A stretch of DNA of 64,000 nucleotides from Craspedostauros australis (Eukaryota; Bacillariophyta; Bacillariophyceae; Mastogloiales; Achnanthaceae). Both the position numbers and the translations under genes were made by a program. The notes beneath the pieces were generated by a model that saw only the letters and a program-made list of their open reading frames with translations, had not been told where the DNA came from and ran no database searches. This document shows, in pieces, positions 21,981 to 58,706 of this stretch; the first letter of the stretch is position 1; each line of letters opens with the position of its first letter. The DNA lies in the NCBI GenBank assembly GCA_026770025.1, contig JAMXDE010000007.1:1-64000 (forward strand). The letters run 5' to 3'.

Positions 21981-21991
21981 ACAAGACTCCC

Positions 21992-22722: not shown

Positions 22723-23126
22723 AATGCCGAGGACGAGAATGACGTGATTTCCCAACATCTGCGCACAGCCGAGTCTCTGTTGTACGCGTTGGAACTTCTT
22801 GTTGTCTTCGTCAAATGGGAATTCACTGCCTCTCACATGCAGATGGAGTGTGACGACCCACTGCACTCGGCTCAATTCGCGCTCACGCCCAATGAGGAGG
22901 AGAAGAAAACAACGAAACGATCCCAATCAACCCGAGCACGTACTAACAAGCACAAGCTCCGTAAGAAGAGCACCGGAACCAAAGGCATCTCTTCAGTCAC
23001 CAATGACACTCCAAGCATCACAACTGATATTCGTGACATCACTTGTGTGACAGATGCCGCTGCCAATGACACCGCCACTGCCAACAACGAACAGCCTCAC
23101 GTCCCCACAGACAAACAGCACACTGG
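22723..23126 (+). pseudogene. DNA-transposon transposase-like gene, segment 2 of 3
   Basis: A 404-bp orphan coding stretch trapped between the Copia-C right LTR and the Copia-B left LTR. It is in frame with segment 1 (ends 7066) and segment 3 (starts 31046) once the retrotransposons and one copy of each target duplication are discounted. It encodes a hydrophobic helix-like part (ESLLYALELLVVFVKW) followed by a Lys/Thr-rich low-complexity tail. The lack of stops or frameshifts across three separated pieces suggests the gene was intact when Copia-C and Copia-B arrived. Confidence 0.7.
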
Positions 23127-23921: not shown

Positions 23922-23941
23922 CCCTTCCTGTGTGCATTCGG

Positions 23942-30163: not shown

Positions 30164-30245
30164 TCAGCTTGTTGCTATTGAATGATGTTCGTCTTCCTCG
30201 CACGATCCGAGCCGCGGGCTCGCCCTGATCTATCGTTTATAAACG
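30164..30245 (-). promoter_or_regulatory. Copia-B leader with uncertain primer site
   Basis: 82 bp between the 5' LTR and ATG. On the minus strand the LTR end CCAACA is followed by CGTTTATAAACGATAG, which starts with a 12-bp palindrome and is conserved in Copia-A. It is not complementary to a usual tRNA 3' end (no TGG). I could not match it to a tRNA anticodon arm with confidence. Confidence 0.4.
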
Positions 30246-31039
30246 TGTTGGCAAGTTCCGCTCACGGTAACCTACGATCGTGGAAGATGGTGTTGGTTGA
30301 TAGTCGTCTGTTTGCTATTTCATTACTTGGCTACTCCGATGCTCTCGGTGTACGCCGTTCTTTCGCCCGATGCTCTCGGTGCTTCAATCTGTTTCGTAGA
30401 TTCAGTCTCCGACTATGAGTCGGTACGCGAGATGCTCTCTCGCTCCTCTTCTGTATTCTCTCTCTCTCTCAACATCGTGTGCTCGTCACGCACGATACTC
30501 CGTGTTCGATACGTACTCCGTATTCGACACTCCGTTCATTCAGTACTGGCTCCTACTCCATGAGTACTCGCCATTTGAAGTTCACCTTCTGTATCCATGA
30601 TGCTGATGTCCTTCGGTCATCGGATCTTCGCCTCCTGCTCTGACTTGGAGACAGATGTCGACGTGGTGACATGATGACATCCTGTCGACGTCAGTAGGCG
30701 TCCTTCTGCTCTCCAGATGTCATGTTCCATTGGTGATGCAGTGGTCTGTCAGATGATATCGTCATCTGAGGTTTAGTTGGGAAGTACCTCGAGATTCTCT
30801 TGGTACCATTGATGGATGGACGGACGATCTTCCAATTCTCTCAGAAATCGTTATTTGCAAATTTCCTCCAGAAATCTTGCCCGTTTTCGTGTGTTCCATT
30901 CCCCTGTAATTCTGACGAATCACAGTATACTATTGACACGAATGTAGTTGTACCGTCCAAGTGCGTATGAGAGAATAACGGGTGAACGATGCACATATAC
31001 ACGTACATCTTGACATATACTCACATGTACATCTCGACA
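30246..31039 (-). repeat. 5' LTR of Copia-B
   Basis: 794 bp, matching 23127-23921 except for a few substitutions and one single-base deletion (ccattcccc against ccatttcccc, near 30900). Confidence 0.92.
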
Positions 31040-33115: not shown

Positions 33116-33562
33116 TTGAACTTCACCTATTTCCATCTCGTCGCACAAATTCCCTTCTTCATTTTTGTATTCACACTTTGCATTCATTGTCCCACTCGCA
33201 CAATTCTCTTCACCTGGTGTGCCACTTACATGTTGCTGATCTGCATGTGGTGTGCCACTGACACGATGCTGATCTTCACACGGTTTCATCGTACCTGTGA
33301 TTCCTGACAGATGTCGCCAGTTGTGAAGGTTCGAGTTTGTGAAGGCCCCAGCTGCAGAGGAGCTATGGCCTCCTAGACATCATGCCATTCCTGTACCATG
33401 TTGCCTCATACACAACATCGAACACGCAAACAAAATGGTCCGAACAACCAACAAATCAAACTCTTCATCTCATAAATCCATCCCAGTTGTCAACCAATCA
33501 CACCAAACAAACAACGATCAACCCTGAACCATCAATCACCAACCAACAAGTACCGAACAACC
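33116..33562. promoter_or_regulatory. upstream region of the secreted Cys-rich protein gene
   Basis: About 450 bp between the DNA transposon and ATG 33563. The last 150 bp are A/C-rich (repeated aaccaac and caatcac words), as in many stramenopile 5' leaders. A short minus-strand open frame (33289-33116) with repeated VSGTP is visible but not supported as a gene. Confidence 0.4.
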
Positions 33563-36500: not shown

Positions 36501-36952
36501 GACGAGCCAGTTGCGGTTTTATGGGAGCAAACATCTTTGGCGATGTACGAATAGAAGAAGGAGCATGCGATTCATTCGCTTCATGCAGAAGACTTGCTGA
36601 GCGCAGCAGCCAAGAGCCTACAACGGATCCGATCGTGGCAAGTGTCTTCATCGGAAAGAATGCGTGCAAAGGGGAGAGCGCTTGCGTGCAGTTGCACGCC
36701 GGGAACAAATTTGCAGGAAACGTGGTCATCGAAGACGCTGCCTGCTCGGGTGAGAGGGCGTGCCATCAGCTTGGCAATAGTGACAGTGCAACCAATGACA
36801 TCATCATCATCCAAGGAGTCTGTACGGCAGACGCCAAGTGCACCAAATGCGCCCAAGGACACTTGTGCATGTCGGCCAAAGAGACGTACGTAATCGACGG
36901 CGCAGGCGAGGATTGCCCTGGACCAGTCCAATCTGCCTGCGAAGTACTCTAA
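33563..36952 (+). CDS. secreted Cys-rich protein with two homologous heads and a Ser-Ala-Pro-Thr stalk
   Basis: 1129 residues, single exon. A signal peptide (about residues 1-21, cleavage near TVDA) and a Thr/Pro linker lead into a Cys-rich region (about 120-490). That region is built of repeats of the form G-x-C-x-G-x-x-x-C (for example ACTGDSACKDM and ACIGSEACNSAG). A stalk of about 268 residues (508-775) is almost pure PTSAPT. A second Cys-rich head (about 777-1129) has the same plan: a helical lead-in with xxFGC, then the same short Cys repeats (GACLGRASCGFMG and ACSGERACHQLG). Proteins with such stalks are usually extracellular or cell-wall-linked and O-glycosylated in diatoms. No transmembrane anchor is seen. 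The function is unknown; a structural or adhesive role is an inference. Confidence 0.85.
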   Translation: MIYTKASFVVFLALADMATVDAVLRGNRTPVGPTEQLHTTMKKTRILRDADGDTKTNKGNKNKQVPPTENPAAAETTAPTALPTGPPTDLRSESPSMTPVTQPTALPTSQPTLLPTAKPSAPPAVFDSAIEVSCKPDGTTVLLPQETSAKTIICDATKPSCREAVTAVKESEQLQNFFGCAGDLGEGAARKLFNKYTSSDILAGQLTLVAATNAILVTERPDAMKAVCADVAAMQSPVVADPCCQGSSGCTSVTGSASNSPPFMTIAITACTGDSACKDMGPNPLILDSSCTGDSACELMNENEINPSITGVTFVGEMACTTPRSCEGVGRRAHGDVTIQTGACIGSEACNSAGRRVEQSAPSFRFRSHIDIGSNACVGSNACKDAHSAVNHGTGGKYAGSLTIGAGGCAADGSCEKMGFSDRMRTDLVVPPGGCGSVKGCRGCMTKTECSSDEVYIISDVDGACPKGGNDSNMNPTGDKVEEYCIAQDTLPTDCPTFSPTPFPTPATSPPTSAPTSAPTAPTSAPTSAPTSAPTSAPTSAPTSAPTSAPTSAPTSAPTSTPTSAPTSAPTSAPTSAPTSAPTSAPTSAPTSAPTSAPTSAPTSTPTSAPTSAPTSAPTSAPTSAPISTPTSAPTSAPTSAPTSAPTSAPTSTPTSAPTSAPTSAPTSAPTSAPTSAPTSAPTSAPTSAPTSTPTSAPTSAPTSTPTSAPTSAPTSAPTSAPTSAPTSAPTSAPTAPTSAPTSAPTSAPTSAPTSAPTSAPTAAPTSAPTSIPTLSPASFTVGCLEKPGDGTSTFNPIDGDILCDGATGTCADFVSDVDELTDEGKRKMIKSIFGCDDSDPPQPVTLQEAQERFDNIKNNESVTSALVTIVNDGKKLFTGSGEVLDRDCDGSCCDGGDTGEDVGEGGDVCVTEGQVGVMTVSSGSCVGPFSCYGVRPNTIILDSCKDDSACMNVGSFSPSQPAAGVKVGSVVIGPGACLGRASCGFMGANIFGDVRIEEGACDSFASCRRLAERSSQEPTTDPIVASVFIGKNACKGESACVQLHAGNKFAGNVVIEDAACSGERACHQLGNSDSATNDIIIIQGVCTADAKCTKCAQGHLCMSAKETYVIDGAGEDCPGPVQSACEVL
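35087..35884 (+). repeat. 12-bp coding repeat encoding the SAPT stalk
   Basis: Sixty-odd tandem 12-bp units, mostly [AG]CTCC[AT/CC]ACATC[AG]-like, encode Ser-Ala-Pro-Thr. Occasional Ser-Thr-Pro-Thr units recur at intervals, giving a higher-order repeat of about 60 to 130 bp. Synonymous third-base variation is heavy, while the amino-acid pattern is kept. The antisense strand is also open but encodes only a Gly-Ala-Asp-Val repeat. Confidence 0.9.
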
Positions 36953-37284
36953 TCATCACATACACAGCCACGCATACTAGCATGCTCTAATGCGTACCCT
37001 ACCACCATTTTCATATTTTGTGCTGGCAAAGCAGAGCACTTTGTGACGACAATGTAAACTCTAGCTTCGCTTGTGTCTTCTACAGTGTCTCAGTCACTAA
37101 TCGAGTCAAGATACTGTCTTCGTGGCAGACGTCGAGCGTTCTCCGGAGACGTCCGTTGGAGGTCCTCTTCAAGCACATCGTTGCCGAACTGCGAACATGA
37201 GAACAGACATCATCATACCTCATCGCACCTTCATCATCATCACTATCATCAGCGTTACCGCCATCTTCTTCTTCATCCCAAAAT
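36953..37284. other. intergenic, no feature seen
   Basis: 332 bp between two plus-strand genes. It should contain the 3' end signal of the stalk-protein gene and the promoter of the LRR gene. A CATCATCA-rich stretch lies just upstream of ATG 37285. No motif is convincing. Confidence 0.3.
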
Positions 37285-38739
37285 ATGAATAACAATCTGT
37301 CATACGCAATCCCATTGCCTAACCACTCGGTGGACGACTACGTCCGATACGTGAAGAATGCCATCGACACCAACCCCGCTTCGTACAAGCACCTGAAGAT
37401 CGGAAACTTCTTCTTCCGGGGCAACCTGACAAATGATCACGTCATCGGACTGTTGGATTACGCTTGGAAACATCAGAATCTTCCGGATCAACCCATCTCA
37501 GCCTTGCATTCCCTCACGCTGTGCGACATCTGCTTTCGGGATGATACGGCGCTGGCGCTGTCGAGGCTGTTGGCTCGAGATCACTGCTGGAAGGCATTGG
37601 CGTTGCGGTCCTGCTCCAATCTGCACATGCTGCAAACCACGAGCGTTGCCCAAGATGAGACGACAGCACCGGCCTTCCACGTGCAGCATCTCGTCCTGAC
37701 CAAGTGCGCGATGGATGATCAGACTCTGCAATGGCTCGCGACCGTGCTGTCAACGACGTCCTCTCTGGATGCGTTGGATATTGCGGAAGAAAATATGCCG
37801 GCTCACGAAGGAGGAGAACCTGACACGGATGTTGCAAGCACAAGCGATGATGCCGAGGACGAAGCTCCCTCAATCGGTCTCATCGCGTTCGCAGATGCGC
37901 TGGCCAATTCCACGAATCTGAAACGCCTCTTCTTCAACCATTGCACTATTTCCAAAGTGGCCGCCAAGCAAATCTCCCAAGGCTGCCACGCCAACAGATC
38001 CATAACATCCATCCACTTTCCGGGTTGCAAGATGGAAGATGCGGTCGTGTCCATCTTCCTGCGGGACGGGTTGACGAACCACCCCACGTTGAATCGTATC
38101 AACCTCCTTCGTAATCACGGCGACGACCAAACGGCCCAAGCCTTTGCCGACGCCACCTTCCCGCACCTCACCAAGCTCGAATTGCACTACCAGCAGCCAG
38201 AACGCGCCGGACGGTTGCCGATCGATAACATTCTGCGCAACCTCCAAAACATTGCGCCCAAACTCGAAACGCTGAATCTCTCCTTCAACAAGTTGACGAA
38301 CGCGGATGCCGCCACGATCGCCGACGGTTGGCCACGCTGCCTGCGCGTGCTGGACCTGCGTTCCAACAGGATCAGCGATGACGGTATCAGCGCTCTCGCG
38401 GCACGATTGCCGCATTCCAACCTGCAAGAGCTCATGCTATTTGGCAATGCCTTTGGTTTGCCAGGTGCCTCGGCCTTGCACCATGCCATGCAAAACGCCA
38501 TGCAGGTGCACGTGTTGAATCTGGATTACAGCGTGCCGCTCTTTGCGAACATTCAATTCTACGTCTCTCTGAATCAGGCCGGGCGGCGGTTGCTGCGATC
38601 GTCCAACGTGCCGTTGGGACTGTGGCCGCATATCTTGGAACGTGCGACGAAGGTCGCCTTGAAATCGCATGGGGGATGTCATGAGGCGGACCTTCGATAC
38701 CATTTATTGAAAGGCCCGGCCTTGTTGCATTCATGTTGA
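37285..38739 (+). CDS. leucine-rich repeat protein, ribonuclease-inhibitor-like
   Basis: 484 residues, single exon, no signal peptide or membrane span. LRR units of the RNI type (about 28 residues) are clearest at about residues 320-410 (LETLNLSFNKLTNADAATIA, LRVLDLRSNRISDDGI and LQELMLFGNAFGLPGASAL). Weaker ones occur from about 75. An acidic loop (about 170-195) interrupts the array. The C-terminus (YVSLNQAGRRLLRSSNVPLGLWPHILERA and on) matches the cap I associate with the large diatom LRR family: Asn-x-Ala-Gly-Arg, then a Leu-Trp-Pro motif, then a short helix with LLKGPALL. Likely cytosolic or nuclear and protein-binding; the partner is unknown. Confidence 0.85.
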   Translation: MNNNLSYAIPLPNHSVDDYVRYVKNAIDTNPASYKHLKIGNFFFRGNLTNDHVIGLLDYAWKHQNLPDQPISALHSLTLCDICFRDDTALALSRLLARDHCWKALALRSCSNLHMLQTTSVAQDETTAPAFHVQHLVLTKCAMDDQTLQWLATVLSTTSSLDALDIAEENMPAHEGGEPDTDVASTSDDAEDEAPSIGLIAFADALANSTNLKRLFFNHCTISKVAAKQISQGCHANRSITSIHFPGCKMEDAVVSIFLRDGLTNHPTLNRINLLRNHGDDQTAQAFADATFPHLTKLELHYQQPERAGRLPIDNILRNLQNIAPKLETLNLSFNKLTNADAATIADGWPRCLRVLDLRSNRISDDGISALAARLPHSNLQELMLFGNAFGLPGASALHHAMQNAMQVHVLNLDYSVPLFANIQFYVSLNQAGRRLLRSSNVPLGLWPHILERATKVALKSHGGCHEADLRYHLLKGPALLHSC

Positions 38740-42495: not shown

Positions 42496-45400
42496 TCATT
42501 TCACCCAGTACGTCGTCATCGAACCTTTACCCTTGATCGAGATCTCGCCACGAAGACTCACGGGAATGCGAGGATCCTGCGTCATCAGCAACAACGCACT
42601 GCGCTCAGAGCACTGGACCCTGCCCTTCTCCGATGTTCCCTCCATGCGAGCTGCCACATTCACCGTGTCACCGAACACTCCATAGCGAGGATTCAACGTC
42701 CCCACCACGCTGCTCACCACTGGACCCGTGTGGAAGCCACCTCGGATCTTGATGTACCCCTTGCTCAGATCGTCCGAGTCCACAGGGATGCGACTGGCGG
42801 CCTGGACTGCTTCCATGGCGAACTTCGCGATGCGCTTGACGTGATCATCGGGTTGCTCCTTGGCCAGGTTGGATGCGCACATGTAGGCATCACCGATGGT
42901 CTCGATCTTGAACAGATCGTGTTTCTGGGTCAGCTCGTCGAATGCGCGGTACAGACGGTTGAGCATGGCGGATACCTTGAGGGGAGAGAAGGAAGAAGCG
43001 ATGCTCGTGAAGCCCACGATGTCAGAGAAGAAGATGGTGACCTCATCGTGTGATTCTGGTTCTGGGTGTCCACCTCTCTCGAGTACTCTGGCGATGTGTG
43101 GTGGGAACATCTGCGAGAGGAGGTGGATTCCGTGAGCTTGTTGTTGCTGCTGCTGTTGCTGGTGGGTGAGAGGAGGCAGAGATGATGCACCAATGCTGCT
43201 CGTTCCCGCGATGGCAGCAGCAGTGCCAACAGTGCCAGCAGCAGTAGGAATCACGAAGCCTGGTGCGGACTTCATGCCTTGAAGGGATCGTCTCAAACCT
43301 CCTCCGCTTCTCATACCCAAACCCATACTCCCCATGCTTCCCATGCCGAGGCTGCCCATGCCGACATTTCCACCGATGCCCATGCCTGCCGTGGCAAGGC
43401 CTCCAACGTACGTCGGTGCCACCTTCTCGACAGTCAGCTCCTTCAGACGGTTGTCAAACTCGCCTGCTGTGGGACGCAACGAAGGATCCGCCACCATCAA
43501 GAACTTCATCAGCTTCGATACCTTCGGTGGACACGCCGGAGGCACTGGTGGTCGACGGTTGATCTTGATGTCGCACACCTGTTGGAGGACGTCGAGCGCA
43601 TTCTCTCCTTCGTACGGATCTCGCCGACTGTACAGCTCGTACAGGATGATGCCCAGCGAGTACATGTCGGATGCTGCGGTGTTGGATGTCTCTCCCCTCA
43701 GCAGCTCGGGTGCCATGAAGAACGGTGTTCCCATCGCACCCTTCTTCTTGCGATGGGAGAAGCCGAAGTCTGCCACCTTGGCTCGGAACTTGCTGTCCAC
43801 CAGCACGTTGGCTGACTTGAGATCGCCGTGGATGACCTGCGGATCGGCGGAGTGCAGGAAGCGCACGCCTGATGCGATGTCGCGCAGGAAGTTGAGGATG
43901 AGCTCACCATCCATCAGCATGGTCTCGTTGTGGAGGAGGTCGTACAATGATCCGTGGCTCATGTACTCCATGACGAGAGTCGGTTCTTGTCCTTTGGCGA
44001 TGACAGCACCCATGACGGTGGTGATGCATGGATGTCTGAGCTTGGATAGGAGTCTCATCTCTTGTACGAACTCGTCCTTCTGTCTGCTGTACGAGCTGGA
44101 TGATCCATCGTGGTTGTTGCGACGGAAGATGTTGAGGAATCCCTGTGAGAGAAAGCTGAAGCTGTTGCTGATGCTCCTTCCGATGCCGGCGTTGCTGCCA
44201 CTGCCGCTACCACTGTTGCTCTTGAGGTTGTATTTGTACTTGCTTCCACTGTTGCTGTTGCTGTTGTTGTTGCTATTGGATCCACGCTGCACGACAACAA
44301 GCCTCGAGTCGAGACCGGATGCGCGTCCCGAGAGCATGACGTTGTTCCGTCCATCGAATGTGCGCATTCCAGATCTCTTGCCGTTGATGACACGAGTAGA
44401 TCCAGATCTAGAACCAGAACCAGATCTCGATCCTGCGATGTTGCCTGAGAATGTCGCGGATAGCTTGCGTGGCATGCTGGCGGCGGAAGTCTTGGCTGCG
44501 GGCGTTCTGGTCGATCTAGTGGATCGGCGCGAAGTCGAAGCCATGCCTGACTCCATCCCTGATGCTACAGCTGATCCCATACTTGATCCCATCCCTGACA
44601 CAGTGGCTGATGCTGTGGCTGATGCCATTCCGGAGGCCATGCCACTGGATCTGTTCTTGGGACGAATGCTCTCAATGTGACTGGCCTCCAGATCTCTGTC
44701 GAGCTGCAGGTCGAGGGGTAGATCGCAGTCGCTGTCTGTCTCGATGTCTCGCTCATTGATCGTGGATGATGTGGCAGTGGTGAGCGCTGTATTGAAGGGA
44801 CGATGCAAAGAACCATCGCCCGCCGAGCTGGATCGATGGTCATGGATATCACCAACGCTGCTCCTGATATTGCTGTTGGTGTGCGTTGTGCTTGTGGATG
44901 TGATGTCGACCATGACATTGCTCGACATGCCAGATGCGGAATGGAACATGCCCGATTTGAGAGTCTTGGCCTTGAGGGTTGTTGGTGCCGGTGCCGATGC
45001 CGATGCTGCTCCGTTCATCATGCCTGCACTCGATCCAATCGGCTCCACCTCGTCAGATGAGTCTGTTCCACCTTCCTGCGCATTGCCGTTGCCATTACCG
45101 TTGGTGTGACTGCCAGAACCATTCCCATCATGATCGACACCAAACGATGCACGCACCAGATCTTCGCTGTGTGGTGCCAGCACTCTCTTCACTGCCACCT
45201 GCGTACCTCGGTACTCCGCCAGAAGGACGAAGCCGAACGTGCCCTGACCAATGACCTGAGGAGGATCGGTGAACAACAGCTCCTCTGGCTTGACGGCCCA
45301 CACAGAGTCGGCTTCTTGACGCTTCTTCTCGACGTACCACATCACCACGATGAGGAAGAGAAGGAACATGGGGACCAGGATGGATGGGATGAGGATCGAG

Positions 45401-47349
45401 AGTAGCACGCATGTGCCGAAGAGATCGACTGCGTCGTCGTTGCAGACGCAAACACCATCGGCATCGGGTTGTCGTATGTCGCTGTAGTCAACAGAGCAGT
45501 CTCGCTCGATGATCTGGATGCGGAGCGGGCTTTCTGGTATCTGTTCTCCATCGAGGAAGATCTCGAGGATGAGGCTTCCGACTTGTCGTGACATGACGGT
45601 GAAGTGATGGATGTTGCTGTTAACGACGCTGCCAATCGCAACGTTGCTGCCTGTGTCTGTGATGACATCATTGCTGATGATGGTATCGAGCGGGATCTTG
45701 GTGACGGTGGCCTGTCGTGTGGATTGTCCTTCATGCACAGTGACGGTGACGATGGCGTCGGTTCTGTTCTTGTTGTCGATGGCTTGCAGCGTGATGGGTA
45801 TGGTTTGCTGCGATGTTCCACAGACGGACATCTTCGGGCATCCAGCCGATGTGGCCGGGAGTGGCAGCGTTGGTGTTTGTTGTTGCGATGACGATGTTGG
45901 GATGAGGGAGGACACGTCGACGTCGAATGCCTTGAGGCATGGGCTGCAAAGGCATTGATGTCCATCTTTGCACTCTTGCTCGATCTCACGACATCCTTGG
46001 TCGACCTGTTCCTTGGACTTGACGAAGAACCCTGCAGGACACCGGATGGCGTCGTAGAGTTCGGACGGCTTGACGCATTCCCAATCATTGAGCTTCAAAT
46101 CCTGCGCCATGAATTGCGTGGCTTGCAGCATATTCCTCACTTCGGAGTACGAATACGGCGTCTGGAAGCCAGCATACCCGCCGTCATTCATGGCACGCTT
46201 GGCGGCGATGGCGACGTCGTAGGTGGTGTCGCATCGTGTCCACGCGGATGCTGGAAGCCCGGTGAGGTCCTTGCACGCTGCGATGGCGAAGGATGCATTG
46301 ACCGAATCGGCCTCTGCCTGCTGAAGGCACGCTTCAATCGCATCACCCAGCTGTGCATGCTCTGCCATGCTGAACATAGCTGATTGCACCTCCTGCGCGA
46401 TATCCGCCGGCATGTCCCCCGTCGCCGCAAAGCTCCATTCTGGGTAGAGCGGAGTGGATGCCACGAATGGGAAGACTTGGCCGCCGATTGTGTTCACGAC
46501 AGGGTCGACGATCTTGAGGCGACTTGCGTCGATCAGATTGCCCTGCTCATCCTTGGTTCTCTCGATCTGGTCCGTTCGGATGAAACCGACATCGAAGTCT
46601 CCGTTCAACACACCGCGCACGGTGGACGTCTGTGTTCCCGTGAACACCACCTGCCTTGGATCGTTGATGTAGGACATGCCGGCATTGATCATCTCTCGGA
46701 ACTGCATCTGTCCAGCGCCGAAGGCCGATATGGCGGCGGCCGCCACCACCTTGTCCTTCAGATCCGTGATTTCGTTGATGGTGGTGTCATCCGATCTGGC
46801 GATGATGACACCTCCGAACCTGGACAGTTCGAAAACGTTGTCACCGATGACCCGCCTGGAGATGTGAGACGCGAGAGGCTTGACGCCATGCTCGACTTCG
46901 ATGCACGTGAAGATGCTTGGGTTGGTGTAGAAGAAGTCCGCCAGGCCATTCTCGGTGGCGCTGAACACAGAGTCGAAGCCCACATCCATCATGCGGAAGC
47001 TGACGGGAGGATCGAAGCGCCTTCCGGCCGTCGCTGTGAGGTAGTCAGCGAAAGTGGTGTTGTGCCGACCATAGGCCACGTCAGGACCGTTCGGCGAGAG
47101 AACTGCGACATTGTAGACGGGCTTGTGCTGGCTCGGATCGAATGGAATGAGGACGTTACATTGCTGCCCACACGGCCCTCCCTCTGTGCCTTGGGCTTGG
47201 GCTTCCGCACCCCATCCCATTGGTTCGGATGTGAAGATGGTGGTTGATCCCACTGCCAGGAGGGTGAGATTCCGGAGCATGCGGCGGTTCTCTCGATGTC
47301 CGGTTGCTTTCATCATGGTGTTCCTTGATTTTGGAGGCGTCATTGTCAT
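42496..47349 (-). CDS. receptor kinase-nucleotide cyclase 1: PhnD-like sensor, TM, kinase, guanylyl cyclase
   Basis: 1617 residues from ATG 47349 (an upstream TTG in frame is not a likely start). A signal-anchor-like helix lies at about 26-45. A phosphonate-binding (PhnD-type) periplasmic domain follows (about 70-370; ADFFYTNPSIFTCIE, DLKDKVVAAAAISAFGAGQ and GDFDVGFIRTDQIE). Next are a Cys-rich linker, a filamin-like Ig domain (about 520-620), one membrane span (about 646-675) and a TKL-like kinase (about 685-1300). The kinase has GQGTFGFV, VAVK, HGDLKSANVLVD, DFGFSH and APELL, so all catalytic residues are present. A Ser/Gly-rich insert of about 370 residues splits the kinase N-lobe between VAVK and the alpha-C helix. 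The class III cyclase (about 1420-1617) has both metal Asp residues (FFSDIVGFT and TIGDAY), KIET with the guanine-type Glu, and DTVNVAARM. Predicted GTP to cGMP, coupled to an extracellular ligand; tail to tail with the SET gene. Confidence 0.9.
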   Translation of the reverse strand: MTMTPPKSRNTMMKATGHRENRRMLRNLTLLAVGSTTIFTSEPMGWGAEAQAQGTEGGPCGQQCNVLIPFDPSQHKPVYNVAVLSPNGPDVAYGRHNTTFADYLTATAGRRFDPPVSFRMMDVGFDSVFSATENGLADFFYTNPSIFTCIEVEHGVKPLASHISRRVIGDNVFELSRFGGVIIARSDDTTINEITDLKDKVVAAAAISAFGAGQMQFREMINAGMSYINDPRQVVFTGTQTSTVRGVLNGDFDVGFIRTDQIERTKDEQGNLIDASRLKIVDPVVNTIGGQVFPFVASTPLYPEWSFAATGDMPADIAQEVQSAMFSMAEHAQLGDAIEACLQQAEADSVNASFAIAACKDLTGLPASAWTRCDTTYDVAIAAKRAMNDGGYAGFQTPYSYSEVRNMLQATQFMAQDLKLNDWECVKPSELYDAIRCPAGFFVKSKEQVDQGCREIEQECKDGHQCLCSPCLKAFDVDVSSLIPTSSSQQQTPTLPLPATSAGCPKMSVCGTSQQTIPITLQAIDNKNRTDAIVTVTVHEGQSTRQATVTKIPLDTIISNDVITDTGSNVAIGSVVNSNIHHFTVMSRQVGSLILEIFLDGEQIPESPLRIQIIERDCSVDYSDIRQPDADGVCVCNDDAVDLFGTCVLLSILIPSILVPMFLLFLIVVMWYVEKKRQEADSVWAVKPEELLFTDPPQVIGQGTFGFVLLAEYRGTQVAVKRVLAPHSEDLVRASFGVDHDGNGSGSHTNGNGNGNAQEGGTDSSDEVEPIGSSAGMMNGAASASAPAPTTLKAKTLKSGMFHSASGMSSNVMVDITSTSTTHTNSNIRSSVGDIHDHRSSSAGDGSLHRPFNTALTTATSSTINERDIETDSDCDLPLDLQLDRDLEASHIESIRPKNRSSGMASGMASATASATVSGMGSSMGSAVASGMESGMASTSRRSTRSTRTPAAKTSAASMPRKLSATFSGNIAGSRSGSGSRSGSTRVINGKRSGMRTFDGRNNVMLSGRASGLDSRLVVVQRGSNSNNNSNSNSGSKYKYNLKSNSGSGSGSNAGIGRSISNSFSFLSQGFLNIFRRNNHDGSSSSYSRQKDEFVQEMRLLSKLRHPCITTVMGAVIAKGQEPTLVMEYMSHGSLYDLLHNETMLMDGELILNFLRDIASGVRFLHSADPQVIHGDLKSANVLVDSKFRAKVADFGFSHRKKKGAMGTPFFMAPELLRGETSNTAASDMYSLGIILYELYSRRDPYEGENALDVLQQVCDIKINRRPPVPPACPPKVSKLMKFLMVADPSLRPTAGEFDNRLKELTVEKVAPTYVGGLATAGMGIGGNVGMGSLGMGSMGSMGLGMRSGGGLRRSLQGMKSAPGFVIPTAAGTVGTAAAIAGTSSIGASSLPPLTHQQQQQQQQAHGIHLLSQMFPPHIARVLERGGHPEPESHDEVTIFFSDIVGFTSIASSFSPLKVSAMLNRLYRAFDELTQKHDLFKIETIGDAYMCASNLAKEQPDDHVKRIAKFAMEAVQAASRIPVDSDDLSKGYIKIRGGFHTGPVVSSVVGTLNPRYGVFGDTVNVAARMEGTSEKGRVQCSERSALLLMTQDPRIPVSLRGEISIKGKGSMTTYWVK

Positions 47350-49258
47350 CAACAACTTCAGCTTTGTGGGAAAGTGGCTTATGAAGAGCCGCGGAGAGCG
47401 CAAGTTTCGTAAGTTGCGAAAGTCGTAAGGTGTGTGTGGGAAGTAGGTGCGTGCGAATTATGTGTGGTACGATTGTCCACTCGGCGAGTGCCTTCGTCTC
47501 CCTCCCCTTGTTGTATGTAGTCTGTTGCGTTGTTTGGCTCTTGGTTGGAGATGATTATGGGAGAGATGTACGATCCACGCATTTTATGGACGGAGAAGAC
47601 GCTGAGTGCTGCGAAGAAGGTGAGCGAAAATGTTCCGCGTCCGCTGTTAACGCACCGTACTGCCGCCAAAGAAAACAGAACCCGGGAGGCGCAGCTTTCC
47701 AAGCTTTGGCAAATGTCAAGCGAAGCTTGAGCGACGTTCCCCAAAAGCGAATACGGTCATATGTCTTGTGTTGCAGCCGCCCAATCGGTTTGGTGCACGC
47801 CGACGAGCATCATTTAACTTGGGCCATAATGGCATTGATACAAGATGTCTCCACCAAACGCGATCGCAAACCATGTCCCAAAAGGCGCGCGGTGATTTCG
47901 CTTCTCTGTTGGGCCTAATCAAGACAAACGTCGAGGGAGAAATTCTGGTTGGGACATCCGCTGTGTCCAATTCCAATCAGTTGGATGGCCTGCTTCTTTG
48001 TTGTGCGCTCCTAATTTTGCTTGTGTTAGTGTTTGTGCGGTTCTGCGATCCCGCATCAGCAACGACGAACCATGCAGCGATCGGCCCATGGCGATGCCTC
48101 GATTCGGCGACTATCCCTCTCTCTCTCTCTCTGTTCCTTCCTTCATTTGTTGACGCACGCTCGGACCCGTCTCCGGAGGCTGGAACCCTTCGTCTTTCCT
48201 GATTCTTGGACAAATGTTGCTATCCCGCACAGTGAAGGAAGTCACCTCGCACCTCCGTGTAGCATCAGAACATGGGACTACCTCGCTGTTCGTTTGTTAT
48301 GCTTGGTGTCCAAGCGAGAAGCTCGCGAGAAGCGTCTCAGAAAAGACCTCAAAGCACTCCAAGATGATCGAATGTACAATTGGCTCGTAGATAGACCACA
48401 CACCAACGAGCACAAGAGCAGCGAAGTCCAAGACGCGTTGAACCCCCAAGGCCATCCATTCTGCTGCACAAGACCAAGGCGGAGGAATCCACACAACTTC
48501 AACGTCTTTGCCTCGACCCTTGCTCTGGGAGAGCTTCATCTGTGACGGGATCGCCACGGCAGGTCAAAAGCAGGAATCCACACAAAAGCAACACACAGCC
48601 AATGTCTGCCCACGACTACAACCCCGACGCCGATACCACGATGGCTCTACAGCAGGCACGCAGGAGTACCGCAATGCAAGGCACTGCCAAATGCCGGCTT
48701 CCGACGGTACCTCCGCCAAAAGGCAGTCCACTCCACAAGCTCTCCATCGAGAAGTAGGCACTCTTGGGAAATTCAGGCGGACACAGAATGTTGCGAAGTC
48801 AGCGAATTGGTCCACGGGATGGCCGAAGGTGACTGCACTGCAACCGCCCTCCGAAAGATCGCAGCACAAGTATGCTCACCTGGAGACACAGAATAACAAA
48901 CAACAACTAACGGGGAGACAAACAATCACAAACCAAAAGACGTCATAGGCCTATTACAAACACTGCGCGACAGACACTTTGTCTGGCCAACGTGTGGATA
49001 GGCCATTCCAACCGAGCAAAAAAGGCAAAATCCAGCAATACTGTCAAAATTGGTTGGAATTTTGAGTTCTTTGTTCGTTGCAAAATTCGCTGGGGCAATC
49101 CCACCCCAAACTTCTGTTCAATCAAGTCCCTACACAACTTGTGGGCCCGAAGGCATCGATAATACGCTGTGAATTCAGACTAGAGTAAGAATTAACTCAG
49201 TGAAGTCTCTTGGCCGAGTGCAATATCAGGACTCGGAATTCAGATCCATGGTTTGGAC
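47350..49258. promoter_or_regulatory. intergenic between the two receptor genes
   Basis: About 1.9 kb containing the promoter of receptor 1 and the 3' region of receptor 2. There is a (CT)n run at 48116-48132. Several open frames of 100 to 170 codons overlap on both strands, but none has a domain, signal peptide or consistent coding look. No similarity to the region upstream of receptor 2 was seen. Confidence 0.4.
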
Positions 49259-52200
49259 TTATTTCACCCAGTACGTCGTCATCGAACCTTTACCCTTGAC
49301 CGAGATCTCGCCGCGAAGACTCACGGGAATGCGAGGATCCTGCGTCATCAGCAACAACGCACTGCGCTCAGAGCACTGGACCCTGCCCTTCTCCGATGTT
49401 CCCTCCATGCGAGCTGCCACATTCACCGTGTCACCGAACACTCCATAGCGAGGATTCAACGTCCCCACCACGCTGCTCACCACTGGACCCGTGTGGAAGC
49501 CACCTCGGATCTTGATGTATCCCTTGCTCAGATCGTCCGAGTCCACAGGGATGCGACTGGCGGCCTGGACTGCTTCCATGGCGAACTTCGCGATGCGCTT
49601 GACGTGATCATCGGGCTGCTTCTTGGCCAGGTTGGATGCGCACATGTAGGCATCACCGATGGTCTCGATCTTGAACAGATCGTGCTTCTGGGTCAGCTCG
49701 TCGAATGCGCGGTACAGACGGTTGAGCATGGCGGATACCTTCAGGGGAGAGAAGGAAGAGGCGATGCTCGTGAAGCCCACGATGTCAGAGAAGAAGATGG
49801 TGACCTCATCGTGTGATTCTGGTTCTGGGTGTCCACCTCTCTCAAGCACTCTGGCGATGTGTGGTGGGAACATCTGCGAGAGGAGGTGGATTCCGTGAGC
49901 TTGTTGTTGCTGCTGCTGTTGCTGGTGGGTGAGAGGAGGCAGAGATGATGCACCAATGCTGCTCGTTCCCGCGATGCTAGCAGCAGTGCCAACAGTGCCA
50001 GCAGCAGCAGGAACCACGAAGCCTGGTGCGGACTTCATGCCTTGAAGGGATCGTCTCAAACCTCCTCCGCTTCTCATACCCAAACCCATACTCCCCATGC
50101 TTCCCATGCCGAGGCTGCCCATGCCGACATTTCCACCGATGCCCATGCCGGCCGTGGCAAGGCCTCCAACGTACGTCGGTGCCACCTTCTCGACAGTCAG
50201 CTCCTTCAGACGGTTGTCAAACTCGCCTGCTGTGGGACGCAACGACGGATCCGCCACCATCAGGAACTTCATCAGCTTCGATACCTTCGGTGGACACGCC
50301 GGAGGCACTGGTGGTCGACGGTTGATCTTGATGTCGCACACCTGTTGGAGGACGTCGAGCGCGTTCTCTCCTTCGTACGGATCACGCCGACTGTACAGCT
50401 CGTACAGGATGATGCCCAGCGAGTACATGTCGGATGCTGCGGTGTTGGATGTCTCTCCCCTCAGCAGCTCGGGTGCCATGAAGAACGGCGTTCCCATCGC
50501 ACCCTTCTTCTTGCGATGGGAGAAGCCGAAGTCTGCCACCTTGGCTCGGAACTTGCTGTCCACCAGCACGTTGGCTGATTTGAGATCGCCGTGGATGACC
50601 TGTGGATCGGCGGAGTGCAGGAAGCGCACGCCTGATGCGATGTCGCGCAGGAAGTTGAGGATGAGCTCACCATCCATCAGCATGGTCTCGTTGTGGAGGA
50701 GGTCGTACAATGATCCGTGGCTCATGTACTCCATGACGAGAGTCGGTTCTTGTCCTTTGGCGATGACAGCACCCATGACGGTGGTGATGCATGGATGTCT
50801 GAGCTTGGACAGGAGTCTCATCTCTTGTATGAACTCGTCCTTCTGTCTGCTGTACGAGCTGGATGATCCATCGTGGTTGTTGCGACGGAAGATGTTGAGG
50901 AATCTTTGTGAGAGAAAGCTGAAGCTGTTGCTGATGCTTCTTCCGATGCCGGCGTTGCTGCCACTGCCGCTACCACTGTTGCTCTTGAGGTTGTATTTGT
51001 ACTTGCTTCCACTGTTGCTGTTGCTGTTGTTGTTGTTGCTATTGGATCCACGCTGCACGACAACAAGCCTCGAGTCGAGACCGGATGCGCGTCCCGAGAG
51101 CATGACGTTGTTCCGTCCATCGAATGTGCGCATTCCAGATCTCTTGCCGTTGATGACACGAGTAGATCCAGATCTAGAACCAGATCCAGATCTCGATCCT
51201 GCGATGTTGCCTGAGAATGTTGCAGATAGCTTGCGTGGCATGCTAGCGGCGGAAGGCTTGGCTGCGGGCGTTCTGGATGTTCTGGTCGATCTAGTGGATC
51301 CAGCTGATCGGCGCGAAGTCGAAGCCATGCCTGAGTCCGCACCTGATGCTACAGCCGATCCCATACTTGATCCCATCCCTGAGACAGTGACTGATGCTGC
51401 GGCTGATGCCATTCCGGAGGCCGTGCCACTGGATCTGTTCTTGGGACGGATGCTCTCAATGTGGCTGGCCTCCAGATCTCTGTCGAGTTGCAGGTCGAGG
51501 GGTAGATCGCAGTCGCTGTCTGTCTCGATGTCTCGTTCATTGATCGTGGACGATGTGGCAGTGGTGAGCGCTGTATTGAAGGGACGATGCAAGGAATCAT
51601 CGCCCGCCGAGTTGGGTCGATGGCCATGGACACCACCAACGCTGCTGCTCCTGATATTGCTGTTGGCGTGCGTTGTGCTTGTGGATGTGATGTCGACCAT
51701 GACGTTGCTCGACATGCCAGATGCAGAATGGAACATGCCCGACTTGAGAGTCTTGGCCTTGAGGGTTGTTGATGCTGATGCTGATGCTGTTCCGTTCACC
51801 ATACCTGCACTTGATCCAATCGGTTCCACCTCGTCAGATGAGTCTGTTCCACCTTCCTGCGCATTGCCGTTGCTATCGCCATTGCCGTTTGTGTGACTAC
51901 CAGAACCATTCCCATCATGATCGACACCAAACGATGCACGCACCAGATCTTCGCTGCGTGGTGCCAGCACTCTCTTCACTGCCACCTGTGTACCTCGGTA
52001 CTCCGCCAGAAGGACGAAGCCGAACGTGCCCTGACCAATGACCTGAGGAGGATCGGTGAACAACAGCTCCTCTGGCTTGACGGCCCACACAGAGTCGGCT
52101 TCTTGACGCTTCTTCTCGACGTACCACATCACCACAATGAGGAAGAGAAGGAACATGGGGACCAGGATGGATGGGATGAGAATCGAAAGTAGCACGCATG

Positions 52201-54055
52201 TGCCGAAGAGGTCGACTGCGTCGTCATTGCAAACGCAAACACCATCGGCATCGGGTTTTCGTATGTCGCTGTAGTCAACGGAGCAGTCTCGCTCGATGAT
52301 CTGGATGCGGAGTGGGCTTTCTGGTATCTGTTCTCCATCGAGGAAGATCTCGAGGATGAGGCTTCCGACTTGTCGTGACATGACGGTGAAGTGATGGATG
52401 TTGCTGTTAACAACGCTGCCAATCGCAACGCTGCTGCCTGTGTCTGTGATGGCATCATTGTTGACATCATTGTTGATGATGGTATGGAGCGGGATCTTGG
52501 TGACGGTGGCCTGTCGTGTGGATTGTCCTTCGTGCACAGTGACGGTGATGATGGCGTCGGTTCTGTTCTTGTTGTCGATGGCTTGCAGCGTGATGGGTAT
52601 GGTTTGCTGCGATGTTCCGCAGACGGACATCTTCGGGCATCCGGCCGATGTGGCCGGGAGTGGCAGCGTTGGTGTTTGTTGTTGCGATGACGATGTTGGG
52701 AGGAGGGAGGACACGTCGACGTCGAATGCCTTGAGGCATGGGCTGCATATGCATGTGTAGTCTTCAGATGGACACGACAAGCCCTCTGTTTGGCATCCAC
52801 GGTCGACTTCCGCTCGTGATTTGCGGAAGAAGCCATCGGGGCACTGAATAGCCTCATAGAGCTGCGATGGTCTGGGACATTGCCACACACCTGATACTGG
52901 ATGCTTTTTCAAGAACCGGATCTCCTCTAGCATGCCACGCACAGGCGCATAGGTAAAGGATGTTCGGAAACCTGCGTATTTGCCGTTTTCCATCGCTCGC
53001 AGCGCCGTCTTGGAGACTTCGTAGGTGGAGTCGAAGCGCAAGTCTTCCGTTTCGACGAGCTTGGAAAGATCCCTGCAACTGTTGACCGCCGTGATGTTGC
53101 CGTTCCCGATGCCCTCTTCGCATGCTCGGATGCGCAAGCCGATGTTGGAGTGATCCAGCAATGCGATCATCGCAGACTGCACCTCCACATTGACCTGCGA
53201 CGGCACGTGTGCCAATGCCGCCAAATTCCATTCTGGGTACAAAGGCGTCAACGCCGTGAAAGGAAACGGTTCTCCGTCGATGTTGAGTCCGTCTTGCTGA
53301 TTCAGAATCTTGAACACGGACGGGTCGATCGGTTCACCAGTTTCGTCATCCTTCGTTCGTTCGATCTGATCCGTGCGGATGAAGCCCACATCGAAGATGC
53401 CCTTCTTCACCCCGTTCACGATTTTGCCTTGGTTGCTCGTGAAAACGACCTGTTTTGGATCTTGGATGTATGACAGCTTCGCGACTTGCAATTCGCGGAA
53501 CTGCATCTGCCCAGCTCCGAAGGCAGAAACGGAGGCTGCTGCAATGGTCTTGTTTCGCAGATCTTGCAGCGTGTTGATCCTGTCGTTATCTGCTCTGACA
53601 GCGACGACGCCGCCGAATTTGGATAAGATGTATTCCTCTCCGTTGACGAACCGCTTGGATATGTGAGACACCAGGCTCTCTGTTCCAAACTCAGCCTCCA
53701 GGCAGGTGGATGCACTTGGGTTGACGTAGGTAAAATCGATGGACGCCGCTGGCTGCGTTGCGTCGAACATACCCTCGAACCCCAGCGCGACCATTTCGAA
53801 GGAGATGGGAGGATCGAAACGCTGTCCAACCGTCTGCGTGAGGTACTCCGAAAAGGTGACATTGTGACGTTGGAAGGCGTTGTCGACGCCTGTGATGGCC
53901 AGCACGCCGATGGTGTACTTGGATTTGTACGTGTGGTTGCGATGCTTTGGAAGACCGTGAGAAGCAGCGCACTGCTCGTCGGCGGTTGTCTCCAATGTCG
54001 CAGCGCCCAAGGCGAGCAAGCCGAGAGCAACAGCATGAGTCGAGAAACCTCTCAT
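49259..54055 (-). CDS. receptor kinase-nucleotide cyclase 2, tandem paralogue with a divergent sensor
   Basis: 1598 residues from ATG 54055, with a clean signal peptide (THAVALGLLALGAATLETTA). Same domain order as receptor 1: PhnD-like sensor (about 45-345; IDFTYVNPSASTCLEAEFG, SAFGAGQMQFRE and GIFDVGFIRTDQIE), Cys-rich linker, filamin-like domain, membrane span, kinase with the large Ser/Gly insert, class III cyclase. From CSPCLKAFDVDVSS to the last codon the protein is almost identical to receptor 1, with small insertions and deletions only in the low-complexity insert. The sensor half is only about half identical by eye. All kinase and cyclase catalytic residues are kept (HGDLKSANVLVD, DFGFSH, FFSDIVGFT, KIETIGDAY and DTVNVAAR). 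The second purine-selectivity position is Gly (RYGVFGDT) where animal guanylyl cyclases have Cys, so GTP preference is likely but not certain. Confidence 0.9.
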   Translation of the reverse strand: MRGFSTHAVALGLLALGAATLETTADEQCAASHGLPKHRNHTYKSKYTIGVLAITGVDNAFQRHNVTFSEYLTQTVGQRFDPPISFEMVALGFEGMFDATQPAASIDFTYVNPSASTCLEAEFGTESLVSHISKRFVNGEEYILSKFGGVVAVRADNDRINTLQDLRNKTIAAASVSAFGAGQMQFRELQVAKLSYIQDPKQVVFTSNQGKIVNGVKKGIFDVGFIRTDQIERTKDDETGEPIDPSVFKILNQQDGLNIDGEPFPFTALTPLYPEWNLAALAHVPSQVNVEVQSAMIALLDHSNIGLRIRACEEGIGNGNITAVNSCRDLSKLVETEDLRFDSTYEVSKTALRAMENGKYAGFRTSFTYAPVRGMLEEIRFLKKHPVSGVWQCPRPSQLYEAIQCPDGFFRKSRAEVDRGCQTEGLSCPSEDYTCICSPCLKAFDVDVSSLLPTSSSQQQTPTLPLPATSAGCPKMSVCGTSQQTIPITLQAIDNKNRTDAIITVTVHEGQSTRQATVTKIPLHTIINNDVNNDAITDTGSSVAIGSVVNSNIHHFTVMSRQVGSLILEIFLDGEQIPESPLRIQIIERDCSVDYSDIRKPDADGVCVCNDDAVDLFGTCVLLSILIPSILVPMFLLFLIVVMWYVEKKRQEADSVWAVKPEELLFTDPPQVIGQGTFGFVLLAEYRGTQVAVKRVLAPRSEDLVRASFGVDHDGNGSGSHTNGNGDSNGNAQEGGTDSSDEVEPIGSSAGMVNGTASASASTTLKAKTLKSGMFHSASGMSSNVMVDITSTSTTHANSNIRSSSVGGVHGHRPNSAGDDSLHRPFNTALTTATSSTINERDIETDSDCDLPLDLQLDRDLEASHIESIRPKNRSSGTASGMASAAASVTVSGMGSSMGSAVASGADSGMASTSRRSAGSTRSTRTSRTPAAKPSAASMPRKLSATFSGNIAGSRSGSGSRSGSTRVINGKRSGMRTFDGRNNVMLSGRASGLDSRLVVVQRGSNSNNNNSNSNSGSKYKYNLKSNSGSGSGSNAGIGRSISNSFSFLSQRFLNIFRRNNHDGSSSSYSRQKDEFIQEMRLLSKLRHPCITTVMGAVIAKGQEPTLVMEYMSHGSLYDLLHNETMLMDGELILNFLRDIASGVRFLHSADPQVIHGDLKSANVLVDSKFRAKVADFGFSHRKKKGAMGTPFFMAPELLRGETSNTAASDMYSLGIILYELYSRRDPYEGENALDVLQQVCDIKINRRPPVPPACPPKVSKLMKFLMVADPSLRPTAGEFDNRLKELTVEKVAPTYVGGLATAGMGIGGNVGMGSLGMGSMGSMGLGMRSGGGLRRSLQGMKSAPGFVVPAAAGTVGTAASIAGTSSIGASSLPPLTHQQQQQQQQAHGIHLLSQMFPPHIARVLERGGHPEPESHDEVTIFFSDIVGFTSIASSFSPLKVSAMLNRLYRAFDELTQKHDLFKIETIGDAYMCASNLAKKQPDDHVKRIAKFAMEAVQAASRIPVDSDDLSKGYIKIRGGFHTGPVVSSVVGTLNPRYGVFGDTVNVAARMEGTSEKGRVQCSERSALLLMTQDPRIPVSLRGEISVKGKGSMTTYWVK

Positions 54056-56775: not shown

Positions 56776-57505
56776 GTTGTAGCGGCACTTACTTGTGAAT
56801 CGTGCACGAGTGATCGATGGACTTCTGTGGATGGAGTATCAACGTCATTTGTGAGAGGAAGACTTCGCTCCATTCCAAGGCAACCTGAGGAGTTCGTGTG
56901 CGACGTGTGATGAACCGGTGCCTTGCGCTGTGGAGCACGCACCCTGGGATGATCCGTCGAGCAATCGATCACCGCGTTACAGTGTGATAATGCGAAACAC
57001 AAAAACACGGGATACGTAGACGTCTACGCTGCCCTACTATAGTTCAACGCATCCGTTTTGCCTGGAAGATCCCATAGTATATCCGTTTTGATTTATTTAA
57101 AATGCAATGAATGTATACATTGAATAAACATAGATGTTTCCTATAAGCATCAAGGACTATACGGCTACTAGTATAGTGCATATCTAGCGTTGTTCTAGAC
57201 TCAACGCTCGACGTATCTTTTTGATTTGCTCCTGTTAGTCGACGATTGTGGAGAAACATGGGTCTTCTGTCGTGTGTGACACTCTCTCGGAGTATACACA
57301 TGTAAGTACACTGGCGTGTTGGCACGTCGCCATGTGTTTCGTGAGGAACGACATGGGGAGTTCGTTTGTGGGGAGCCAACGGGACATTGACGTGAGGCTC
57401 GCGTGTGTTTCACCATGTGCAACACGTCGGGACAGACACCGACATGACATCGATCTGCGACAAGCACGACATGGACATGCGACAGACACGACAGAGGACC
57501 GGATC

Positions 57506-57574
57506 GACGAGCAAGGGGACGCGGAAGTGACGAGCAAGGGGACGCGCAAGTGACGAGCAAGGGGACGCGCAAGT
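57506..57574 (+). repeat. 23-bp minisatellite, three units
   Basis: Three tandem copies of GACGAGCAAGGGGACGCG followed by (C/G)AAGT, in the non-coding middle of the putative Harbinger element. The same unit recurs at 57890. Confidence 0.85.
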
Positions 57575-57889
57575 GACGACCAAATTTCTCGCAATTACCG
57601 CGGTTTTGTCGGTGCGACATGTCGCGAAAGTAGACCATACTACGATGTCTAATCTAGTTGTATGTTAAAGGGCGGCAGAGTGCACTTTTCAAAAATAGAT
57701 TACATGAATGTAAGCGTACTATCCGTATAATAGTAGCACCCATATTTGATCGTGATCGCAACATTATTCTGAAGCACAATTGATATCAGAGTTTTGCATC
57801 GCAGCGTCTCCAGAACTGATCACCTACGATACTGTGACATCTCTCTATAAGTAAAGTGCGGTAAGGGAGGTGTCGATTTTTCAGGAATC

Positions 57890-57981
57890 GACGAGCAAGG
57901 GGACGTGCAAGTGACGAGCAAGGGGACGAGCAAGTGACGAGCAAGGGGACGAGCAAGTGACGAGCAAGGGGACGAGCAAGG
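57890..57981 (+). repeat. 23-bp minisatellite, four units
   Basis: Four tandem copies of the unit also found at 57506-57574, with position 17 varying (GTG, GAG). About 315 bp of AT-rich sequence separates the two arrays. Confidence 0.85.
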
Positions 57982-58706
57982 GACGCGACTTCAGCGCGAC
58001 GTGAGCACGACGTGAGCACGACTAGTACAAGACCGATTCACGACAAGGGTAAGACTCCACGACAGTGCGCGGTCCGATGTTGTCTATTCATGGCTGGATG
58101 TCCATGATTGTTCGTGTTGAGCGCAAGGTCTATTACGGACGCCCCAGATAGAGCACAGCAGCACGCGTGCAAGAATGATACAGCACACAGGAGGGCATTC
58201 AGCTCGATACTCGTTTCCCTCCCCTCCAGAGCGTGCTTGCTTGCAGTGCCGGGCGAACGGAGCAGCGCGCACGTTCGTCCAAGAGAGCCTCCCATGAAGT
58301 CGTGGATGTGCTCTGATCATTACAGTACATACAACAACGAAGGAGTTAATCCGCTCTTTCGTCCGTTGAATCCTGCCTTGCTCGGCACCCTTGGTCACAG
58401 CGAAGCACAAGTGGGGCGCAGCATTGGAGGACAACGGTACAACGGTACACTTTGTCCGCCTTCTCTGCGATTAGCGCGGAAGAACGCCCTTGCTTGATTG
58501 GCTCCCCCACAGCAAAGCGCGGAACAACTGCTGTAGCTGGAGAGCATGCGAAGCCACACAAGAAAGCTCGTTTCGTCATTGCCAAGTCGCAGTTGACTTG
58601 CGCACAATTAGTACTAGTTCAACGGTTACTTGTTGACATTGTTGTTTTTCGCCTCATTTTGACATTTCTAGTTGCACAAGAGCTCATAATTCGCAACAAC
58701 ACGAGA

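What the first reader, a model, noticed from the sequence alone, without database searches (positions are those of the whole stretch)
42496..54055. Tandem receptor kinase-cyclases: swapped sensors on a homogenised signalling module
Two neighbouring genes share almost identical sequence from about 45946 (gene 1) and 52741 (gene 2) to the last sense codon. Upstream of those points their sensor domains are only about half identical. The boundary is abrupt (AGGCATGGGCTGCA, then divergent). The near-identity also ends exactly at the stop codon (TGA in one, TAA in the other) with unrelated 3' flanks. This fits gene conversion or a recent domain exchange that keeps one output module while ligand-binding heads diverge.
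Basis: partly seen in the sequence, partly recalled or inferred. Interest (0 to 1): 0.8.

Follow-up and report, generated by a model that had tools for sequence, protein, structure and literature searches.

The report
Tandem algal receptors sharing converted output
Two neighbouring receptor genes in an alga have old, different sensor ends but an almost identical signalling end, most likely because one gene recently overwrote that half of its neighbour by gene conversion, a known process seen here in an unusual-looking receptor.

Summary
Genes A (42496-47403, -) and B (49259-54055, -) go from about 57% to about 97% nucleotide identity within one codon (A 45948, B 52747) and stay alike to the last sense codon; the 3' flanks are unrelated. 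Synonymous divergence falls from about 1.5 to 0.01-0.15. A third paralogue, C (contig C25), gives the history. In the sensor A pairs with C (71% aa; A-B 48%; A+B clade rejected, p 0.001); in the output A pairs with B. A-C divergence is alike in both halves; B is the mosaic. Best explanation: a 3.45-kb conversion tract from A (or its lineage) overwrote B's membrane-proximal, transmembrane, kinase and cyclase parts. Localised homogenisation also appears in a tandem cyclase-phosphodiesterase pair on C63 (42% to 97% near the cyclase border) and, more weakly, in the dispersed pair G/H. The process is known (mammalian TLR1/TLR6). The receptor make-up looks unusual: a phosphonate-binding-like head, a kinase with intact motifs and a cyclase; one relative has a histidine kinase and two receivers instead. 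Ligand, biochemical activity and species were not established.

The parts
42496..47403 (-). Gene A: receptor with phosphonate-binding-like sensor, Cys-rich module, membrane-proximal domain, one TM, kinase, class III cyclase (single ORF; first in-frame ATG about 47349)
49259..54055 (-). Gene B: tandem paralogue of A, same architecture, mosaic (old sensor, A-type output)
46039..47115 (-). A sensor: periplasmic phosphonate-binding-like domain (PF12974, E 5e-27)
52841..53917 (-). B sensor: PF12974 (E 2e-17), 48% aa identical to A's
42499..45948 (-). Near-identical tract in A (inferred donor): from the CSPC motif to the last sense codon
49262..52747 (-). Near-identical tract in B (inferred recipient)
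45340..45396 (-). A transmembrane segment (only 19-residue stretch over mean hydropathy 1.6)
52127..52183 (-). B transmembrane segment, same residues as A's
43435..45255 (-). A kinase domain; glycine loop, VAVK, HGDLKxxN, DFG and APE motifs present; includes the insert
44077..45171 (-). A: Ser-rich insert between VAVK and the EFxxEM stretch (375 residues from motif to motif; 383 in B)
50198..52042 (-). B kinase domain with the same insert
42499..43134 (-). A class III cyclase domain (PF00211, E 5e-53); FSDIV, ETIGD and GDTVN motifs present
49262..49897 (-). B class III cyclase domain (PF00211, E 2e-53)

Best explanation
A and B are old tandem paralogues. A gene-conversion event (or several overlapping ones) copied about 3.45 kb of A, or of a gene of its lineage, into B, replacing B's membrane-proximal domain, transmembrane segment, kinase and cyclase and leaving B's phosphonate-binding-like sensor. 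The tract runs from a short conserved Cys motif (CSPC) to the stop codon. Both ends fit the limits of pairable homology: upstream the sensors differ at about 43% of bases, downstream the flanks are unrelated. Shown: the step, the two-ended tract, discordant relationships, synonymous collapse, A-C divergence alike in both halves. Inferred: direction A to B, conversion rather than double crossover, and the use: two different heads drive one interchangeable kinase-cyclase, able to form mixed dimers because class III cyclases act as dimers (recalled).
For: Sensor: A=C at 287 sites, B=C 123, A=B 102; output: A=B 916, A=C 36, B=C 23 (Fisher p 2e-159 on A=B/A=C). Sensor tree joins A with C (100/99); A+B clade rejected (AU p 0.001); A+C rejected in the cyclase (p 0.04; A+B support there 89/93). 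Codon identity at shared residues: A/B 87 of 180 in the sensor, 1014 of 1073 in the output; A/C 156 of 267 and 382 of 677, alike in both halves; B/C 86 of 195 and 380 of 676. Over the 28 pairs of eight members, B-C (sensor 0.52, kinase 0.92) is out of line with other pairs of similar sensor identity (A-E 0.48/0.58, B-E 0.47/0.59, C-E 0.47/0.58, F-G and F-H 0.54/0.70). The junction is at a homologous codon in A-E. Other homogenised groups: L041/L050 on C63 and, weaker, G/H.
Against: The kinase protein tree does not resolve A, B and C (A+C not rejected, p 0.42; A+B 58/0). Differences inside the tract are clumped (variance/mean 2.99 against 0.98 expected, 0 of 2000 shuffles as high), so one clean event is too simple; the longest mismatch-free run (243 bases) is not exceptional (163 of 2000 shuffles as long). 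Four-fold sites are close to saturation for A-B and B-C in the sensor (54 of 83 and 55 of 88 differ), so direction rests mainly on protein identity and the tree. No population or sister-species data were available.
Confidence: 0.85

Rival explanations
1. Recent tandem duplication of A followed by replacement of the copy's sensor with a diverged one.
For: Gives the same hybrid coding sequence; modular exchange exists in the family: C10 joins the same sensor type to a histidine kinase, and C6 joins the same kinase-cyclase type to another ectodomain.
Against: A duplicated 3' end should carry a recognisable copy of A's 3' flank; there is none. The junction sits at the homologous codon, as homologous recombination predicts. 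The duplication break would have to fall at the stop codon.
Confidence: 0.08
2. Strong purifying selection, also on synonymous sites, keeps the output half alike without any exchange.
For: Kinase C-lobe and cyclase are more conserved than the sensor in A-C and A-D (not the kinase insert or the second linker).
Against: A-C shows dS 0.87-3.24 in the same output domains; L040-L044 have a cyclase 95% identical in protein at dS 1.25. Conservation does not keep synonymous sites alike here.
Confidence: 0.02
3. Conversion ran from B to A, or both ways (a variant of the best explanation; the odds overlap).
For: Clumped differences suggest more than one event; of 94 differences C shares A's base at 36 and B's at 23, 35 undecided, which does not settle it.
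Against: A-C codon identity is equal in both halves, while B-C changes from 52% (sensor) to 92% (kinase) protein identity.
Confidence: 0.1
4. Assembly artefact (copied or collapsed sequence).
For: Tandem near-identical repeats are hard to assemble; no reads were available.
Against: 94 substitutions plus indels are spread over the tract, too many for a copied sequence.
Confidence: 0.02

Closest known systems
TLR1/TLR6 gene conversion in mammals (PMC2077338; abstract and section 6 read)
   Same: Tandem receptor paralogues; the C-terminal part including TM and most of the intracellular domain is homogenised with abrupt borders while the N-terminal part keeps the old tree; codon identity at conserved residues jumps (56% to 96% there; 48% to 95% here).
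   Different: There shown in nine species as independent events; here one genome. There leucine-rich repeats and TIR; here a phosphonate-binding-like head, kinase and cyclase.
Arabidopsis OAK receptor-kinase cluster (PMC3136440; passages read)
   Same: Tandem receptor kinases with an identical 2.7-kb fragment that the authors put down to recent gene conversion.
   Different: There the ectodomain side is the converted side.
Trypanosoma brucei receptor adenylate cyclases (PMC6027212; passages read)
   Same: Venus-flytrap/periplasmic-binding-like variable ectodomain, one TM, highly conserved cyclase domain.
   Different: No kinase domain and no conversion tract are mentioned in the passages that I read.
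Animal receptor guanylyl cyclases
   Same: Ectodomain, one TM, kinase-like domain, class III cyclase; among solved structures GC-C matches the cyclase best, followed by adenylate cyclase 9 and the ANP receptor.
   Different: Kinase catalytic motifs are intact here, whereas animal ones are pseudokinases (recalled); the guanine-selecting Cys (recalled) aligns with Gly.
Bifunctional cyclase/phosphodiesterase of the diatom Seminavis robusta (PMC4726125; passages read)
   Same: A membrane cyclase with a PDE, as in L041 of this genome.
   Different: A and B carry a kinase and no PDE.

Membership tests
Ectopic gene conversion between tandem paralogues (TLR1/TLR6 type) | Relationships of the two parts disagree | tested here: met
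   the kinase-only protein tree is unresolved
Ectopic gene conversion between tandem paralogues (TLR1/TLR6 type) | Tract bounded at both ends, with low synonymous divergence inside only | tested here: met
Ectopic gene conversion between tandem paralogues (TLR1/TLR6 type) | Independent recurrence at the same genes in related species | not testable with these tools
   the genome has no relatives in the held set
Receptor guanylyl cyclase | Ectodomain, single TM, kinase-like domain, class III cyclase in order | tested here: met
   signal peptide and topology were not tested
Receptor guanylyl cyclase | Kinase homology domain lacking the catalytic Asp (animal members; recalled) | tested here: not met
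   HGDLKSAN, VAVK and DFG present
Receptor guanylyl cyclase | Cyclase metal and transition-state residues | tested here: met
   (alignment with GC-C; roles of the residues recalled)
Receptor guanylyl cyclase | GTP-selecting Glu/Cys pair (recalled) | tested here: inconclusive
   Glu present, Cys aligns with Gly; adenylate cyclase 9 chains rank second to fifth
PhnD-like phosphonate-binding proteins | Match over the curated cut-off of PF12974 | tested here: met
   (A 95.2, B 63.9 bits; cut-off 27)
PhnD-like phosphonate-binding proteins | Phosphonate-binding pocket or binding | not tested
   no solved relative by sequence; the model was too poor to use

The most novel reading that the evidence does not exclude
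In this alga, conversion repeatedly re-standardises the catalytic ends of receptor cyclases (kinase-cyclase and cyclase-PDE families alike), so that diverging sensors stay plugged into interchangeable outputs and neighbouring receptors can form mixed dimers that integrate two ligands.
Probability: 0.25. Interest if true: 0.7.

Novelty: new variant of a known kind. Interest (0 to 1): 0.45.

Why it matters
It is a clean case, with a third paralogue to orient it, of conversion limited to the signalling half of tandem receptors in an alga. It suggests how a large family of receptor cyclases could vary sensors while keeping outputs exchangeable. It also draws attention to receptors that join a bacterial-type phosphonate-binding-like head to a kinase with intact motifs and a cyclase, or to a histidine kinase with receivers.

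Tried and rejected
Purifying selection as the cause of the near-identity: rejected by A-C and by L040-L044. Whole-gene duplication with later sensor swap: disfavoured by the unrelated 3' flanks. Simple unequal crossover: it should put A's 3' flank behind B; not seen. Solved relatives of the sensor by sequence: two matches, E 0.47 and 0.74, not credible. Structure prediction of the sensor from the two window sequences: mean pLDDT 38.7, not used and not fold-searched. Leucine-rich and Calx-beta-like stretches that I thought I saw in the C6 ectodomain: Pfam gave only a marginal PAN match there (22.8 bits, cut-off 21.4) and weak kinase matches, so not claimed. A filamin/Ig-like reading of the membrane-proximal domain: no Pfam match, so it is only called membrane-proximal. 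Naming the species: not attempted beyond the light-harvesting proteins. Literature: (terms around phosphonate, cyclase, receptor, diatom) each gave 0 papers with all terms; other searches were made, of which I saw the listings. Passages of PMC2939053 were also read and not used.

Full report
Setting. The window is the first 64 kb of contig C5 of a 74.8-Mb, 90-contig genome. It is a eukaryotic alga: 61 matches to the chlorophyll-binding family PF00504. One of these proteins, searched against solved structures, gave LHCI chains of entry 9vfj first (E 8e-46 and weaker) and fucoxanthin-chlorophyll proteins next (best E 5e-32). That it is a diatom is my inference; the species was not identified. 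The genome gave 150 scored matches of 155 candidates to the cyclase family PF00211 (exon by exon, so not a gene count) and 8 to the phosphonate-binding family PF12974.

Observation. A and B are long open frames on the minus strand, about 1.9 kb apart, with the same Pfam order: PF12974, kinase, PF00211. In 40-codon windows A-B identity is 40-67% before the border and 87-100% after it; the window that holds the border reads 88.0%. At base level the last mismatches are 3 and 1 bases before the codon at A 45948 / B 52747, and the next one is 45 bases after it. The near-identity ends with the last sense codon. The 1.5-kb 3' flanks and the 5' regions share nothing significant. Downstream of A a SET-domain ORF on the other strand ends 126 bases away.

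Synonymous divergence. A-B dS is 1.53 in the sensor and 0.06, 0.15, 0.04, 0.13, 0.05, 0.01 and 0.06 across the seven output parts. Codons are identical at 87 of 180 shared residues in the sensor and 1014 of 1073 in the output.

The third paralogue. C lies on contig C25 (L017). In the sensor A-C is 71%, A-B 48% and B-C 51-52% identical in protein; in the output A-B is 94-100%, and A-C and B-C agree within 2.5 points in each domain. A-C codon identity is alike in both halves (156 of 267; 382 of 677), so A and C behave as plain duplicates; B-C goes from 86 of 195 to 380 of 676. Site patterns reverse across the border: A=C 287, B=C 123, A=B 102 in the sensor; A=B 916, A=C 36, B=C 23 in the output. 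The sensor tree of 8 members joins A with C at 100/99 and puts B next (96/95); the AU test rejects A+B (p 0.001). The cyclase tree (8 rows) joins A with B at 89/93 and rejects A+C at p 0.04. The kinase tree (9 rows) does not resolve A, B and C (A+B 58/0; A+C p 0.42), because the proteins are nearly identical there.

Mechanism. The tract is bounded at both ends, sits at homologous codons and carries no 3' flank. That fits conversion between existing paralogues better than duplication with a later swap or a single unequal crossover. B is the mosaic, so A (or a gene of its lineage) was the likely donor. The 94 differences in the tract are clumped (variance/mean 2.99; 0 of 2000 shuffles as high); 47 of them lie in tract bases 840-1800, inside the kinase insert. 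Repeated or partial events, or faster change in that low-complexity stretch, would explain this. The longest mismatch-free run, 243 bases, is not exceptional (163 of 2000 shuffles).

Is it general? I compared 27 cyclase loci of about 3.5 kb held from searches, 351 pairs; 71 pairs had cyclase identity of at least 0.6 and dS under 1.5, and 11 of the 71 had cyclase dS under 0.5. Of the 11, three (L041 with L037, L050 and L053; one gene against three) show a low-dS cyclase (0.31, 0.17, 0.21) beside upstream dS of 0.91 or more. L041 and L050 are tandem on C63, 6.8 kb apart. In 20-codon bins their identity goes from 42% to 97% about 20 codons before the Pfam-matched cyclase, stays at 78-100% through it (two dips, 82% and 78%), falls to 36-77% after it, and is high again over parts of the phosphodiesterase (mostly 87-100%, with low patches down to 33%) (PDE match). 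Of the other eight, L001/L002 are A and B themselves, whose border lies beyond these loci; seven show no such step in the stretch held, though dS outside the cyclase reaches 0.63 (L037-L050) and 0.54 (L050-L053). Separately, G and H on C15, 935 kb apart, are patchy: dS 0.71 and 2.48 in two windows near the N-terminus, 0.16-0.82 over the sensor, 0.04-0.31 around TM and kinase, 0.08-0.47 over much of the cyclase, and 0.95-2.04 in four windows near the C-terminus. This is weaker evidence than a step. So localised homogenisation appears in three groups; how common it is genome-wide is open.

Function. Kinase motifs (glycine loop, VAVK, HGDLKxxN, DFG, APE) and cyclase motifs are intact in A and B (GC-C alignment). 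The Glu of the guanine-selecting pair is present and the Cys is Gly (pair recalled); GC-C is the best solved match and adenylate cyclase 9 the next, so GTP is likely but unproved. One hydrophobic segment suits a single TM; a signal peptide was not tested. I infer that ligand binding outside drives the kinase-cyclase inside, and that A and B give the same kind of signal for different ligands; neither ligand nor activity was tested.

Relatives. PF12974 sensors occur in A, B, C, D (C33), E (C10), F (C1), G and H (C15), each with kinase matches. E ends in a histidine kinase and two receivers instead of a cyclase. A gene on C6 has the same TM-kinase-cyclase type but no PF12974 match in the genome search; its ectodomain, seen only in part, gave a marginal PAN match.

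Known or new. Conversion that homogenises the signalling half of tandem receptors is known from TLR1/TLR6 (PMC2077338, abstract and section 6), and conversion in tandem receptor kinases from Arabidopsis (PMC3136440, passages). Variable flytrap-like ectodomains on conserved cyclases are known from trypanosomes (PMC6027212, passages). Three searches of the held open-access library found no paper with all the terms chosen for a phosphonate-head receptor cyclase; subscription papers were not covered, and no eukaryotic sequence collection was available. I rate it a new variant of a known kind.

Noticed in passing
L018 555-6683 (contig C10): A relative with the same phosphonate-binding-like sensor and kinase but with a histidine kinase and two receiver domains in place of the cyclase.
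   Followed up: partly
L019, L020, L021 (F, G, H): Cyclase domains of F, G and H appear to have lost catalytic residues (GDTVN reads GDTVR in F and GDAVK in G and H; the FSDIV motif is degraded), so they may be pseudocyclases.
   Followed up: partly
window 44077-45171 and the other kinases of the family: All nine kinases examined (A-H and the C6 gene) carry a long insert between VAVK and the [EDN]F[IV]xEM motif, 126 to 383 residues from motif to motif.
   Followed up: partly
L041 and L050 (contig C63): Tandem membrane cyclase genes, L041 with a phosphodiesterase match, with identity steps near the borders of the catalytic domains.
   Followed up: yes
window 7067-22304: Probable nested Copia-type retrotransposons: repeat pair 13214/19771 around an RVT_2 ORF (14021-19747) inside a second element with repeat pair 7067/22005.
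   Followed up: partly
window 23126-30544: Another Copia element (ORF 23942-30163) with repeats at 23126 and 30245 and a further copy at 839.
   Followed up: no
window from 34991, about 0.9 kb: Array of 12-base units inside ORF 33476-36952, which matches the PT disordered repeat.
   Followed up: no
window 57480-58013: Two small arrays of a 23-base unit a few hundred bases apart.
   Followed up: no
window 37201-38739: ORF with leucine-rich repeats.
   Followed up: no
L067 with L003 (contig C6): Same TM-kinase-cyclase type under a different, long ectodomain (seen in part) with a marginal PAN match.
   Followed up: partly
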